Of a stretch of DNA of 35,012 nucleotides, positions 4,496-34,767 are shown piece by piece. Below the pieces are notes generated by a model. It was not told the origin of the DNA. It did no database searches and saw nothing but the letters and a program-made list of their open reading frames with translations. The DNA is from Akkermansia muciniphila. Its GTDB lineage: Bacteria; Verrucomicrobiota; Verrucomicrobiia; Limisphaerales; BJHT01. Position numbers and translations under genes: made by a program. Position 1 is the first letter of the stretch. Each line of letters opens with the position of its first letter. The stretch covers positions 1-35,012 of the forward strand of contig CAMAUZ010000080.1 in the NCBI GenBank assembly GCA_945861535.1. Direction: 5' to 3'.

Positions 4496-4699
4496 GCGCT
4501 TAGCCGTAATCATTCAGTCGAACCGAATTTTTGACCACAGAGACACGATGAACACAGAGAAAGCCAAGGACTCGCTGGTCAAGCTTCGTTCACTGAATGG
4601 TGACTTCTCGGAGCCGCGGCCGTCCGACGTTCTTCTCTGTGTTCATCGTGTCTCTGTGGTTTTCTGTCCCATTCCAACTGAATAGTTACGGCTTAGCGC
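4496..4699. repeat. long inverted repeat, family E copy 1
   Basis: A perfect 28-nt inverted repeat (4534-4561 against 4633-4660, containing GACACGATGAACACAGAG) is flanked by longer imperfect arms with AGCCGTAA...ATTCAG on the left and its complement at 4675-4699. The whole unit is about 200 nt. The same core arms recur at 7327-7354/7426-7453 and, with slight change, at 21756-21783/21855-21882. The centre of copies 1 and 2 shares GGTGACTTCT. It has no coding capacity that I trust. Confidence 0.85.
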
Positions 4700-6928: not shown

Positions 6929-7109
6929 GGGGATTAGGGCGGGAGGGGAAATTTAACCACGGATGGACTCGGATGAACACGGATGGGAAAGCTCAAAGGA
7001 TAAAGCTCAAAGCTTAAGGGAAGGACCAGGCTCCAAGGACCAAGTGACGAGCGATGGGCTGGCCACGCCGACTTATTGCCTAAGTCGAAGTTATGCGGTG
7101 AGGGCGGCG

Positions 7110-7273
7110 GGAGCGCGGCCTTCAGGCCGCAGAAACGTCCACCCGCAGCCGCTGCTCCAAACCACCCGCACGCGTACCTCCACTCACCATTTGAGTGAAG
7201 CGGAAAAGGAGCGTCTGGAAATTCGCCCGCCCCATCCATGACGCACGTTTCTGCGGCCTGAAGGCCGCGCTCC
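7110..7273. repeat. perfect 29-nt inverted repeat with hairpin arms
   Basis: Arms 7110-7138 and 7245-7273 are perfectly complementary over 29 nt. Each arm contains GCGGCC-TTCA-GGCCGC, a hairpin in its own right. The roughly 106-nt centre includes CACTCACCATTTGAGTG, another small stem. No coding sequence is recognised. Confidence 0.85.
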
Positions 7274-7287
7274 AGCTGCATGGTTGC

Positions 7288-7493
7288 GCCTAAGCCGTAG
7301 CTATTCAGTTGAGCAGATGCAAATGAACCACAGAGACACGATGAACACAGAGAAGAAAAGGAATTCGCTAAGACACATCTACTAACTGATTGGTGACTTC
7401 TTAGTGGCGACTCTACTCCTCTTCTTTCTCTGTGTTCATCGTGTCTCTGTGGTCTTACTTCCCGTTTCAACTGAATAGGAACGAATAAGTCCC
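7288..7493. repeat. long inverted repeat, family E copy 2
   Basis: The same 28-nt arms as at 4534-4561/4633-4660 occur here at 7327-7354 and 7426-7453. The outer arms contain CTATTCAGTTGA in both orientations. The centre shares GGTGACTTCT with copy 1, which shows that the whole element was copied, not just the arms. Confidence 0.85.
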
Positions 7494-8895: not shown

Positions 8896-8986
8896 GGCAA
8901 AGGAATGGAGGCAAACGAATGGGGAGGAACGGGGGGGGCAGATTCAGGATTCCCGGTCCCCATTCCTTTGCCTCCATTCCTTTGCC
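8896..8986. repeat. inverted repeat of GGCAAAGGAATG words
   Basis: Arms 8896-8924 and 8958-8986 match in inverted order at 28 of 29 positions. Each arm is a doubled 14-nt word (GGCAAAGGAATGGA type). Flanking 8830-8880 is a purine-rich run of GGCAGGGGAATT words that looks like further decayed copies. It sits between divergent queA and mraZ. The remaining stretch to 9190 shows nothing I can name beyond a TTGACG at 9172-9177 that could be a -35 box without a clear -10. Confidence 0.8.
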
Positions 8987-21723: not shown

Positions 21724-21755
21724 CTGCAGCCCTTTCGGCAAGACAAGACAGATGA

Positions 21756-21882
21756 ACCACAGAGACGCGATGAACACAGAGCAGGAAAGAAAGTGGCTGT
21801 GTTGTTTTGGTTCGCTGCTCGGTGGCATCCCGGCGCGGGAGCATCGGTCGGTTTTTCTCTGTGTTCATCGTGTCTCTGTGGT
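21756..21882. repeat. long inverted repeat, family E copy 3
   Basis: Arms 21756-21783 and 21855-21882 carry the same 28-nt core as copies at 4534 and 7327, with GACGCGATG in place of GACACGATG and one end change in the left arm; the right arm is identical to the other copies. The outer arms and centre differ more than between copies 1 and 2. It fills most of the 203-nt gap between ftsW and murG. Confidence 0.85.
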
Positions 21883-21926
21883 TAATCAATTTGGCCCCGC
21901 CTGCCTCGTCACCGCCTAGCTCCCCA

Positions 21927-31703: not shown

Positions 31704-31713
31704 AATGGCGGGG

Positions 31714-31899
31714 TCCCGGAGGGACGTATGATAATAGCCCAGTGCTTTAGCACTGGGTTGGGCGGGAGGGGAAGCGAGTCCCGAAGGGACGAATGAATCG
31801 GGCGGGTGGGGTTCAGTCGTCCCTTCGGGACTTGGGGGTTCCGGGTGGGGTGTGACCCAGCGCTAAAGCACTGGGCTATTGTCGGGCGTCCCTGCGGGA
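31714..31899. repeat. long inverted repeat with hairpin arms
   Basis: Arms of about 82 nt (31714-31795 and 31817-31899) are complementary in order. Both carry AATAGCCCAGTGCTTTAGC-type sequence and GTCCCGAAGGGAC-type hairpins. The centre is only about 20 nt. It lies in the 674-nt gap between two - strand genes, which is entirely repeats. Confidence 0.8.
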
Positions 31900-31912
31900 C
31901 TGGGGGTGCGGT

Positions 31913-31991
31913 GGTAGGGCGCGTCTGTCCCCAGCGCGCCGGTGGGGCGTGCGGATGGTCCGGCGGCGCGGTGAGGACACCGCGCCCTACC
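31913..31991. repeat. GGTAGGGCGCGG inverted repeat, intergenic copy
   Basis: The right arm (31961-31991) contains GCGCGGTG-TCCT-CACCGCGC, a hairpin when read as the complement, and ends GCGCCCTACC. The left arm from 31913 is a more diverged complement. The 31-nt right arm is identical to that of the copy at 33154-33184 inside the TIR-STAND gene. Confidence 0.8.
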
Positions 31992-32022: not shown

Positions 32023-34638
32023 TCATGCTTGGCACTCCTGGAGGGTGGCTTGCGCTTTCACGAGTTCGGTGTGGCTGAGGGAGGTGTAGAGGGCCACGGC
32101 CTGCTGGGCATGGGGCAGCGCCTCCTTCCGGCGGTCCTGGCGCAGCAGGGCCATCGCGAGGCGGTGGTGGTTGCTGGCCACCAGTTCCTTGCGGCCGACC
32201 TTTTCAGCCATGGGCAGGGCCTCCCGCGCCCGCGCCTCGGCTTCCTTCCAGTCTTCGCGGTCCAGCGCCAACTCCGCCAGATTGCCGGTGTAGATGGCCA
32301 CGCCCTCAGCATGCCCCACCGCGCGGGCGATGCGCAGGGCCTCGCGGAAATCCCGCTCCGCCGCCGGGTAGTCCTCCATGGAGCTCTCAATGTTCGCCAC
32401 GGTATTCAGGCCGCTGGCCACATCCGCGCTCTCCGCCGACAAGGAACGGAGTAGCTCGACGACCTGGCGGGCGTCCGCGAGGGCGGCGCGGTAATCCTGC
32501 TTCAACCGATGGCCAAGGCTGCGCAACTGGAGGGCAGTGGACTGTTCCCGCACTCCGTCCTGGGCCTGGGTCCAGTGGGCGGCCGCCCGCGCGGCACAGG
32601 CCAGAACTTCGTCACCCTGGCGCCGGAGGTAATGCACCCAGCCGGCTTCGTAGGCACGCCAGCCGGCTTTGTCATCGTCCCCGGCGGCTAAAGCTCTGGT
32701 CTCGGACTGGAGGTTCAGCGCCAGCCATTCATCCCAGCGGCCGGTGAAGTTGAGGAAGCTTATCAGGGCGTCGCAGACGGTCTGAAGGCGCGGGTTTGGC
32801 CCAGCCACGAAGAGGGGGATGGCGGGAGCCACGGTCGGCCACGCGGCCTCGAGGATGGGGAAGCGGGCGTGCTGCTCGTAGCCATTCTCCACGATGAGGG
32901 CGTAGGCGCGGTTTTCCAGACTCTTCGCGGTGGCGGCCATGAGGGCGGGGAACTTGTGGCGCAGGAAGTCCGCCACCATGGGCACCAGAGTGTAGGCGCG
33001 CTCCTCCTGGTCCGGCACGACGAGCGAGCGGTTGGCGAGGGAGCGGAGGGCCACCTCCACGGCGGCGAGGTCGAAGGCGTTGGTAGGGCGCGGCGTCCTC
33101 ACCGCGCCGTCGGGGGACGGGGGGTTCGCGAGGTTGGGAGATGCTCCGGCGTTCGGCGGCGCGGTGAGGACACCGCGCCCTACCTTTGTGGCGGGGGAGG
33201 GAGGCGCATTCGGAGCCGGAGCGCCGAGCATTGCTCGGCCCGGTGACGACGGGTGGTCCGTGCCGAGCAATGCTCGGCGCTCCGCACCGGCCACGGTGGC
33301 GATGTGCGCCACGGTGGCGGGTTGGGTGAAGTAGCTCAGGGCTACCAGCACCTTGGTTTCCGCTTCGGAGAAGTCCTTCGCGAGGTCGCCGAAGATGAAT
33401 TCCAAGGGGTCGTTGCCTTCGGGACAGCTCCGCAGGTAGTCAATGGCACCGGTGAAGGTGCGGCAGTTGCCCCGGCCTAGTTGGCCAGCGGTCCAGCGCA
33501 GGAGCAGGGGCTTCCCGCCGGTCTGGGTGTAGAGGACGATGCGCTCGGCTTCGTTCGTCTTCGCGAGGAGTTTGTTGCGGCGGGCCAAATCCGCGAGCAG
33601 GGCCAGGGCGGCGTCCTGGTCGAGCTGTTCCAGGATGAGCAGTTCCGCTCCAGCCGAGAGGCGGCGACGGCTGGTGAGGATGGCCTTGCAGCCGCCGGGG
33701 AGGCGTTTGACAAAGTTGAAGAGCTGGTCGCGGTCGCCTTTGGTGAGGGACTCCAGATTATCGAGGATGAGGAGGACTTTGAGCGGGCGGAGGGCTTCGA
33801 GGAGGAGCCGGGGGCGGTCGGTGTCGGCGGATTTGCCAAAGTCGGTGAGGCCCAGCTCGCGGGCGAGTTCACTGAGCATCTCCTGAAAGCCCGGAATGAG
33901 CTTGGTGTCGAGGTAACGCTCGCCGTCGTCATCCATCTCCCGGTCCTTGACGGAGGTGAAGAGGATGCGGTCGAAGAGGCCCGGAGGACAATCGTAGGCG
34001 GCGCGGATGGCCAGGGAGGTCTTGCCCATGCCGCCGGGGCCGTCAATGAGCGCACCCCAGGTGCGGGCTTCGGGAGAGAGGGCGTCGCGGATTTGCTGGA
34101 GTTCGGCGGTGCGGCCGAAGAAGGGCTGGAGGCGGGGGAGGTTGTTGGGGGTGGAGGTGTGGAGGGGTTTGTCGTTGGGAGGAGTGGGCTTCGTGTAATG
34201 GTCCTTGGGGTGGCGTTCGTTCAGGGCCAGGCGTTCCAAGATGAGGGTGGCGGCGCTCTCCGGTGTTTCAGTGTCGAGATCGACGTAGCCGGCGAGACCT
34301 TCGAGGGCTTCGGGTTCGACGCGAGCGAATCGGGTGAGCATGATTCGCTTTCCCTTTCGCTTCTTCAGCAGGCCGCGAATAGTTTTCCACTCCAAGCCGC
34401 ACCATTCCTTTTTGTCGTACCCGGGACACAGGATAGCGACAATGAGATCGGATTTGTCGCGGTATAGTTTCGTCAGGTGGGCGACGAGATCGGCCTGCGC
34501 GAATTCGGCGCGATGGAATTTGTCATAGAGAATTTTCTCCTCTTTGAAGCGAGCCGCGAGGATCTCGGCCACCTTGGCGACAAAGTCGCGCTTCTCTCCG
34601 GCAAAGGAGAACGCTATGCGAAACCGACGGGGAGTCAT
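32023..34638 (-). CDS. TIR-STAND NTPase-TPR protein (NLR-like, probable defence protein)
   Basis: The 871-residue protein has three parts. Residues about 4-140 form a TIR domain ('FRIAFSFAGEKRDFVAKVAEI', then 'LIVAILCPGYDKKEWCGLEW'); the WCxxE glutamate matches the catalytic residue of NAD-cleaving TIRs. Residues about 175-440 form a STAND/NB-ARC NTPase: Walker A 'GPGGMGKTSLA', Walker B 'VLLILDNLE', and sensor 'AILTSRRR'. A winged helix follows, interrupted at about 452-519 by repeat-derived sequence, then C-terminal TPR-like helices ('GNLAELALDREDWKEAEARA'). In bacteria such proteins sense phage proteins through the repeats, oligomerise and deplete NAD+. That role is inferred here. ATG 34638 is preferred over a TTG at 34677. 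No partner gene is adjacent. Confidence 0.85.
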   Translation of the reverse strand: MTPRRFRIAFSFAGEKRDFVAKVAEILAARFKEEKILYDKFHRAEFAQADLVAHLTKLYRDKSDLIVAILCPGYDKKEWCGLEWKTIRGLLKKRKGKRIMLTRFARVEPEALEGLAGYVDLDTETPESAATLILERLALNERHPKDHYTKPTPPNDKPLHTSTPNNLPRLQPFFGRTAELQQIRDALSPEARTWGALIDGPGGMGKTSLAIRAAYDCPPGLFDRILFTSVKDREMDDDGERYLDTKLIPGFQEMLSELARELGLTDFGKSADTDRPRLLLEALRPLKVLLILDNLESLTKGDRDQLFNFVKRLPGGCKAILTSRRRLSAGAELLILEQLDQDAALALLADLARRNKLLAKTNEAERIVLYTQTGGKPLLLRWTAGQLGRGNCRTFTGAIDYLRSCPEGNDPLEFIFGDLAKDFSEAETKVLVALSYFTQPATVAHIATVAGAERRALLGTDHPSSPGRAMLGAPAPNAPPSPATKVGRGVLTAPPNAGASPNLANPPSPDGAVRTPRPTNAFDLAAVEVALRSLANRSLVVPDQEERAYTLVPMVADFLRHKFPALMAATAKSLENRAYALIVENGYEQHARFPILEAAWPTVAPAIPLFVAGPNPRLQTVCDALISFLNFTGRWDEWLALNLQSETRALAAGDDDKAGWRAYEAGWVHYLRRQGDEVLACAARAAAHWTQAQDGVREQSTALQLRSLGHRLKQDYRAALADARQVVELLRSLSAESADVASGLNTVANIESSMEDYPAAERDFREALRIARAVGHAEGVAIYTGNLAELALDREDWKEAEARAREALPMAEKVGRKELVASNHHRLAMALLRQDRRKEALPHAQQAVALYTSLSHTELVKAQATLQECQA
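33082..33184. repeat. GGTAGGGCGCGG inverted repeat, in-gene copy
   Basis: Arms 33082-33112 and 33154-33184 are inverted copies differing at about two of 31 positions. The right arm is identical to 31961-31991. On the coding strand it supplies the words VGRGVLTAPP and DGAVRTPRPTN in the TIR-STAND protein. Confidence 0.9.
33218..33283. repeat. perfect 22-nt inverted repeat inside TIR-STAND gene
   Basis: Arms 33218-33239 and 33262-33283 are perfect complements. Each contains GCCGAGCATTGCTCGGC, itself a palindrome around one base. The unit spans 66 nt, exactly 22 codons, so insertion keeps the frame. It is adjacent to the previous element. Confidence 0.9.
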
Positions 34639-34767
34639 ACCGGGGTGGAGAGTAGGGACGGCGGGGGAGGAAGGCAAGGGGCGGGGTGGGAAAAGGCAAA
34701 AGGGGGACTGGGGAGGGCAAAAGGGGAAAGGAAGGGAGTGGGGGAGCAGGCGGGGCGGGGTTTGGGT

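What the first reader, a model, noticed from the sequence alone, without database searches (positions are those of the whole stretch)
33082..33283. Two palindromic elements inserted in frame in the winged-helix region of a TIR-STAND protein
Two inverted-repeat elements lie back to back in the coding sequence, and one is shared, with an identical 31-nt arm, with an intergenic copy at 31913-31991. Together they encode about 68 residues (452-519) that interrupt an otherwise normal winged helix. The 66-nt unit is exactly 22 codons. This is analogous to Rickettsia palindromic elements, which become part of proteins, but in an unrelated phylum and in a likely immune gene.
Basis: partly seen in the sequence, partly recalled or inferred. 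Interest (0 to 1): 0.85.

Follow-up and report, generated by a model that had tools for sequence, protein, structure and literature searches.

The report
Mobile palindromes coding a receptor loop
Small mobile palindromic repeats appear to have inserted in frame, more than once and in different lineages, into the same loop of a bacterial immune-receptor-like protein, so that repeat DNA now most likely codes part of that protein without destroying it.

Summary
The 884-codon TIR-STAND-TPR gene (window 32023-34677, minus) holds two adjacent palindromes, A (33082-33184) and B (33217-33284), which make up a 210-nt in-frame block (33076-33285). The 31-nt arm shared with the intergenic copy is confirmed.

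Both are REPIN-type repeats: inverted pairs of GTAG- or GGAG-tagged palindromes, high copy in this 7.9-Mb genome. B lies on both sides of a RAYT-like transposase gene.

Sixteen homologue rows from several phyla join the two sides with no extra residue, so this is an insertion. The same position, the helix-turn-helix turn of the winged helix, carries different repeat inserts in four other proteins: the in-genome paralogue, the syntenic gene of the sister species, and two other genomes. A tree needs four label changes. AlphaFold2 gives the insert very low confidence and folds the helices on either side.

IspG and an RND pump show similar inserts in loops, so this is not immune-specific. Best reading: REPINs insert widely, and selection spares in-frame, stop-free copies in permissive loops. 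Intragenic REPs, including in Verrucomicrobia, are already published (PMC3733652); recurrence at one exact turn is the notable part.

The parts
32023..34677 (-). TIR - STAND NTPase - winged helix - TPR protein, 884 codons from TTG; likely start ATG at 34638 (871 aa)
   Evidence: ORF; Pfam TIR_2 and TPR_12 over the curated cut-off, AAA_16 and NB-ARC just under it; PH0952 STAND, CED-4 and plant NLR structures match the fold
33076..33285 (-). whole in-frame insert, 210 nt = 70 codons (residues 465-534 of 884; 452-521 from ATG 34638)
   Evidence: absent from 16 insert-free homologue rows; pLDDT under 50 at model residues 453-520
33217..33284 (.). type B REPIN: inverted pair of GGAGCGCCGAGCATTGCTCGGC
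   Evidence: 27-nt arms, 96% complementary; both arms 0 mismatches to the type B query; 28 B units in 2.0 Mb
33082..33184 (.). type A REPIN: inverted pair of GTAGGGCGCGGTGTCCTCACCGCGCC
   Evidence: 31-nt arms, 94% complementary; arms 1 and 0 mismatches to the type A query; 20 A and 102 A2 units in 2.0 Mb
33185..33216 (-). 32-nt coding spacer between the two REPINs
   Evidence: sequence
33289..33312 (-). helix 2 of the winged helix (model residues 443-450), just before the insert
   Evidence: AlphaFold2 model
33031..33069 (-). helix 3 of the winged helix (model residues 524-536), just after the insert
   Evidence: AlphaFold2 model
31913..31991 (.). intergenic type A REPIN downstream of the stop codon; kept at the same place in the sister species
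   Evidence: alignment with L042

Best explanation
The block is two REPINs (paired REP elements, non-autonomous repeats thought to be moved by RAYT tyrosine transposases) that landed in the turn between helices 2 and 3 of the STAND winged helix. They are kept because they are open, in frame, and extend a surface turn as a disordered loop. Shown here: the elements are high-copy repeats; homologues lack them; other repeats sit at the same turn in four other proteins; similar inserts occur in loops of IspG and of an RND pump; strong hairpins are about 26-fold rarer inside open coding sequence than random positions. Inferred: that RAYTs moved them; that the insert is translated, and tolerated rather than useful; that selection rather than target preference explains the recurrent site.
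For: Repeat nature: 82 matches to the intergenic copy at E <= 0.001 in the own genome (places listed on both strands; 40 of 292 candidates scored); in 2.0 Mb 28 B and 122 A/A2 units and 91 tags-outward pairs of families A, A2, B, C and D. RAYT link: of 9 Y1_Tnp genes, L027's has B REPINs on both sides (0-1 mismatches), L028's has E units on both sides (3-5 mismatches), L029's has a further GTAG palindrome on both sides. Insertion: 16 insert-free homologue rows, 15 different. Recurrence: inserts of 70, 70, 28, 28 and 56 aa in the window gene, L032, L042, L159 and L041, all after residue 451 of the reference L050, made of B+A, C, D, a D-like REPIN and a 25-nt direct repeat; 4 label changes on the tree, bootstrap range 4-4. 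The sister-species gene is syntenic (flank 88% identical) but carries D instead of B+A. Load: the D core occurs 181, 194 and 22 times in the three insert-bearing genomes tested, and 1, 5, 0, 0, 1 times in the five insert-free ones. Permissive loops: IspG and RND pump. Frame: of hairpin clusters with same-strand coding on both sides, 7 are open in frame and 1 is shifted. Clusters open inside coding: 7 of 360 against 1529 of 3000 random positions. Structure: model residues 453-520 are the only long stretch under pLDDT 50, between helices 443-450 and 524-536.
Against: No transcript or peptide data. The RAYT gene between the B REPINs seems frame-broken near its N-terminus, and for A there is only a REPIN about 750 nt from L021's Y1_Tnp domain. 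The window gene and its sister orthologue form one clade, so one old insertion with later replacement is possible; starred branches alone force only 2 changes. L041's insert is a direct repeat, inverted-repeat score 11, near the 99th percentile of random coding. One further internal insert lies elsewhere: L158, 28 aa in the TPR part, with 13-nt inverted arms and a 17-nt direct repeat. In 68 sister-species gene pairs neither of the 2 internal indels of 12 aa or more was palindromic. Two of the 7 in-frame clusters (C16, C80) come from stretches that I chose because they held this family, and one (C7) is probably a mis-called 5' extension. A stricter count on the 91 REPIN pairs gave 4, 2 and 2 in-frame open cases with three settings, and 1 in-frame with a stop in the last. 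Low pLDDT is partly expected, because few alignment rows cover the insert.
Confidence: 0.85

Rival explanations
1. The inserts are adaptive: repeat-coded linkers at the helix-turn-helix turn tune or diversify the receptor, for example by loosening autoinhibition or exposing a binding loop.
For: Five of the six internal inserts of 15 aa or more in the alignment fall at the same turn; the two related genes in one genome each carry one.
Against: IspG and an RND pump show similar inserts; the inserts differ in sequence and length; the insert has low predicted order.
Confidence: 0.1
2. The site is a DNA target hot spot for repeat insertion.
For: Several inserts at one site; flank bias outside type A units (G at -1 in 112 of 112, G at -4 in 67%), B units (C at -1 in 81% of 26) and D units (C at -1 in 69% of 42).
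Against: The repeat tags start at different offsets from the conserved codons, 2, 51, 4 and 16 nt in the window gene, L032, L042 and L159; the strongest bias is in the base next to the repeat and may belong to it; different repeat families are involved.
Confidence: 0.07
3. The inserts shut the receptor off, or mark a decaying gene.
For: Insertion in a core domain; two insert-free relatives are broken, one by a stop (L040) and one by a frame change (L052).
Against: The frame is open with a strong coding score on both sides; conserved residues are kept on both sides in the aligned parts of the five carriers.
Confidence: 0.1
4. An ancestral linker domain, not an insertion.
For: Five related proteins have extra residues there.
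Against: Sixteen rows have none; the inserts differ, and for the window gene, L042, L159 and L041 the insert sequence recurs elsewhere in its own genome.
Confidence: 0.01

Closest known systems
Intragenic GTAG REPs (Di Nocera et al. 2013, PMC3733652; section 15 read whole, other passages by term search, supplement not seen)
   Same: GTAG-tagged palindromes, often dimers, inside ORFs and coding 20-30 aa or more; highest number of intragenic GTAG REPs in O. terrae, a verrucomicrobium; different REPs at about the same site of recB in two Xanthomonas species
   Different: Section 15 names no STAND/NLR or IspG case (its supplementary list of target ORFs was not seen); here several lineages share one exact turn, with different repeats, next to insert-free homologues
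REPINs/BIMEs and RAYT transposases (definition partly recalled)
   Same: Inverted pairs with tags outward, high copy, mostly outside genes, one family beside a RAYT-like gene
   Different: These copies are inside a gene and probably translated; mobility not shown
Rickettsia palindromic elements (recalled, and as cited in PMC3733652)
   Same: Palindromic repeats that become part of proteins in frame
   Different: CGTC tag for the two that the paper classifies; other bacteria; RPE sequences not compared here
STAND/NLR receptors (PH0952, CED-4, plant NLRs)
   Same: NTPase plus winged-helix core
   Different: TPR sensor, N-terminal TIR, and a repeat-coded insert in the winged-helix turn

Membership tests
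REP/REPIN elements | short palindrome with a GTAG/GGAG-type tag at one end | tested here: met
   A = GTAG..., B = GGAG...; that GGAG counts as a REP tag is recalled
REP/REPIN elements | high copy, interspersed, mostly between genes | tested here: met
REP/REPIN elements | inverted pairs with tags outward | tested here: met
   91 pairs in 2.0 Mb
REP/REPIN elements | cognate RAYT gene flanked by the same repeat | tested here: inconclusive
   B on both sides of L027's Y1_Tnp gene, which looks frame-broken; for A only a REPIN near L021's gene
REP/REPIN elements | mobility by the RAYT | not testable with these tools
   needs insertion assays or population data
Rickettsia palindromic elements | RPE sequence, CGTC tag where classified | tested here: not met
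   tags are GTAG/GGAG; RPE sequences themselves were not compared
Rickettsia palindromic elements | in-frame, stop-free insertion inside genes | tested here: met
STAND/NLR protein | P-loop NTPase, winged helix, repeat domain, effector domain | tested here: met
   AAA_16 and NB-ARC are just under Pfam's cut-offs
Known anti-phage defence system | match to a PADLOC-DB 2.0.0 model | tested here: not met
   0 families at E <= 0.001 for 2 proteins

The most novel reading that the evidence does not exclude
The helix-turn-helix turn of this receptor family is a reusable docking point for mobile repeats: REPINs repeatedly supply and replace a translated loop that changes how the receptor is held off or switched on, so that mobile DNA acts as a source of receptor variation.
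Probability: 0.12. Interest if true: 0.8.

Novelty: new member of a known kind. Interest (0 to 1): 0.5.

Why it matters
It gives a natural experiment: the same loop, in one protein family, filled by unlike repeats several times, next to insert-free homologues, with a parallel in a housekeeping enzyme. That makes it testable whether mobile repeats only mark tolerant loops or supply useful protein parts. It also warns that in repeat-rich genomes a protein segment without homologues may be recent repeat DNA.

Tried and rejected
Ancestral domain: rejected; 16 homologue rows lack the segment and the inserts differ. DNA target motif: flank bias only close to the repeats, and tag offsets differ. Known structured RNA in the insert: Rfam gave only MIR531 hits far under its threshold, taken as chance. 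Known defence system: no PADLOC model. Sister-genome indel census: 68 gene pairs, 2 internal indels of 12 aa or more, neither palindromic, so no rate could be given. A phylum-wide search (387 genomes) found no homologue beyond the own genome at E <= 1e-60. IspG second loop: at first I counted four palindromes (my notes still say so); one search shows that the score of one (L210, 8) is reached by 89 of 600 random coding stretches of 111 nt, so three count. Whether these IspG inserts are repeats in their own genomes was not tested. L052 was left out of the tree because a frame change splits it; L048 and L156 are identical rows.

Full report
What is there. The last gene that lies wholly in the window (32023-34677, minus; 884 codons, probably 871 from ATG 34638) codes a TIR domain, a STAND NTPase core, a winged helix and TPR repeats. 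In Pfam, TIR_2 and TPR_12 pass the curated cut-offs; AAA_16 and NB-ARC are just under theirs. Structure matches are PH0952, CED-4 and plant NLRs for the core and TPR proteins for the C-terminal part. Two palindromes lie inside it: A (33082-33184) and B (33217-33284), with 31-nt and 27-nt arms that are 94% and 96% complementary. The B unit, GGAG to CTCC, is 66 nt. One A arm is identical over 31 nt to the intergenic palindrome 31913-31991. As RNA the stretch 33075-33295 folds into two stems at -142 kcal/mol, z -11.2, with 0 of 200 shuffles as good.

What the elements are. The intergenic copy has 82 matches at E <= 0.001 in the own 7.9-Mb genome, places being listed on both strands, with 40 of 292 candidates scored. 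I read 2,004,583 bases of the genome: 100 stretches and the window. Of these, 1,812,787 bases are the twelve largest contigs or parts of them; the rest was chosen because it held known hits (C15, C16, C29, C37, C128) or is the window. These families and C form 91 tags-outward pairs, the REPIN form. The tags are GTAG or GGAG. Nine Y1_Tnp genes exist in the genome. L027's has B REPINs on both sides, L028's E units on both sides at 3-5 mismatches, and L029's a further GTAG palindrome on both sides. L028 and L029 hold open frames of 234 and 248 aa with a PNHVH motif; L027's gene seems frame-broken near its N-terminus. For A the link is weaker: a REPIN about 750 nt from L021's Y1_Tnp domain.

It is an insertion. 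The scan of genome contigs gave 14 loci; searches of the family (2 genomes), class (384) and phylum (387) gave the other homologues. In the 21 rows used for the tree, 16 (15 different) join the two sides of the site directly and 5 have extra residues. L052, split by a frame change, was left out.

It recurs at the same turn. The five inserts all lie after residue 451 of the reference L050: the window gene (70 aa, B+A); its paralogue L032 in the same genome (70 aa, a long hairpin of C units); the sister-species gene L042 in G001 (28 aa, D); L159 in G012, a genome of another family (28 aa, D-like); and L041, a Verrucomicrobiaceae bin (56 aa, two copies of a 25-nt direct repeat). Inverted-repeat scores are 25, 33, 25, 21 and 11; of 600 random coding stretches, 1 reaches 13 at 111 nt and 4 at 240 nt, where the 99th percentile is 11. 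So L041 is not clearly palindromic; its unit occurs at 11 further places in its genome at up to 3 mismatches. One other internal insert of 15 aa or more exists, elsewhere: L158, 28 aa in the TPR part, with 13-nt inverted arms and a 17-nt direct repeat. The tree needs 4 changes of the label, bootstrap range 4-4; starred branches alone force 2, and 184 of 500 label shuffles need as few, so carriers are not clustered. If the four are independent and the protein had 30 equally open loops, one loop would take all four with a chance of about 4 in 100,000 (arithmetic, not a call). The sister gene is syntenic (flanking DNA 88% identical) and keeps the intergenic A copy almost unchanged, yet carries D in place of B+A: either two insertions or one replaced. 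The D core occurs 181, 194 and 22 times in G000, G001 and G012, and 1, 5, 0, 0 and 1 times in the five insert-free genomes G004, G048, G303, G347 and G356.

Where it sits. The AlphaFold2 model (mean pLDDT 79) has one long stretch under 50, residues 453-520, between helices 443-450 and 524-536, with the wing strands following. This is the turn of the helix-turn-helix. The low confidence is partly expected, because few alignment rows cover the insert.

It is not special to immunity. IspG (essential in bacteria that use this pathway; recalled) holds a 74-nt A REPIN in a linker that varies in length among relatives; the sister species has another, AT-rich sequence there. Of 30 genomes searched I aligned 29 genes. 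At a second loop four of the 29 carry inserts. Three are palindromic: G646 (type B, score 14), G651 (13) and G658 (D-like, 25); 1 of 600 random coding stretches of 111 or 130 nt reaches 13. The fourth, G329 (8), is at chance level. The four need 4 changes on the tree, at least 3 forced, though its bootstrap had not settled and many inner branches are weak. An RND pump of the same genome has an A REPIN in one loop and single A and C2 units in two others; by RND topology, recalled, these loops are cytosolic. The sister species has other content in the first two loops and shares part of the third; in the first loop the 8 other relatives are short, in the second all but one are, and the third is covered by only 4 of them, all shorter.

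Selection. Of 360 hairpin clusters, 290 have no coding flank, 59 have one, 7 lie open and in frame within coding sequence, 1 has shifted frames on one strand and 3 have flanks coding on different strands. Of 3000 random 77-nt positions, 1529 lie open in coding, so strong hairpins are about 26-fold rarer there. Five of the 7 are from the twelve largest contigs; C16 and C80 were chosen; C7 is probably a mis-called 5' extension. On the 91 REPIN pairs the in-frame open cases were 4, 2 and 2 with three settings, with no same-strand shift and one in-frame with a stop. These REPINs are open in 62% of six frames and a multiple of 3 long in 19 of 91 cases, so by chance about one in eight would leave the frame open.

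Against or limiting. No expression data. In 68 sister-species gene pairs from 379 kb only 2 internal indels of 12 aa or more were seen, neither palindromic: in-gene gains are rare. The window gene and L042 could share one older insertion. Flank bias exists close to the repeats, but the tags start 2, 51, 4 and 16 nt after the conserved codon in the window gene, L032, L042 and L159, which speaks for a permissive loop rather than a fixed DNA target.

Literature. Di Nocera et al. 2013 (PMC3733652; section 15 read whole, other passages by term search, supplement not seen) report REPs inside ORFs in several species, most in O. terrae for GTAG repeats, and different REPs at about the same site of recB in two Xanthomonas species. 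My other searches of the held library, seen as listings only and as 10 of 161 papers, showed no title or abstract start on this site; the library is partial. Rickettsia elements are from memory and from that paper's citations.

Verdict. The finding is right. It is best explained as REPIN insertion into a permissive turn, known in kind; its recurrence at one exact turn across lineages is the notable part.

Noticed in passing
31712-31757 (-) and 31856-31901 (+): Two inverted copies of Rfam's 'Acido-Lenti-1' sRNA (RF01687), 45.9 and 46.8 bits. The family has at least 135, 82 and 54 matches in G000, G001 and G303 (150 candidates scored in each), many as divergent pairs about 145-150 nt apart, so here it behaves like a high-copy inverted-pair repeat rather than an ordinary sRNA gene.
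   Followed up: partly
L082:7279-9129 and L188, L211, L212: IspG carries an A REPIN in this genome, and three relatives carry different palindromes at a second loop.
   Followed up: yes
L109:3271-6708 and L191: RND efflux pump with repeat units in three loops, with partly different content in the sister species.
   Followed up: partly
L072/L073, G000:C2:157325-160186: A membrane-protein-like gene with four F units and a B REPIN in its reading frame.
   Followed up: no
4534-4660, 7110-7273, 7327-7453, 8896-8986, 21751-21887: Other strong hairpins in the window, between called genes or near a gene start; 7102-7273 has an 83% identical copy on contig C16.
   Followed up: no
L158, insert after reference residue 737: 28-aa insert in the TPR part with a 17-nt direct repeat and 13-nt inverted arms.
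   Followed up: partly
L027:1396-2200 (-): RAYT-like gene between two B REPINs, apparently frame-broken near its N-terminus.
   Followed up: partly
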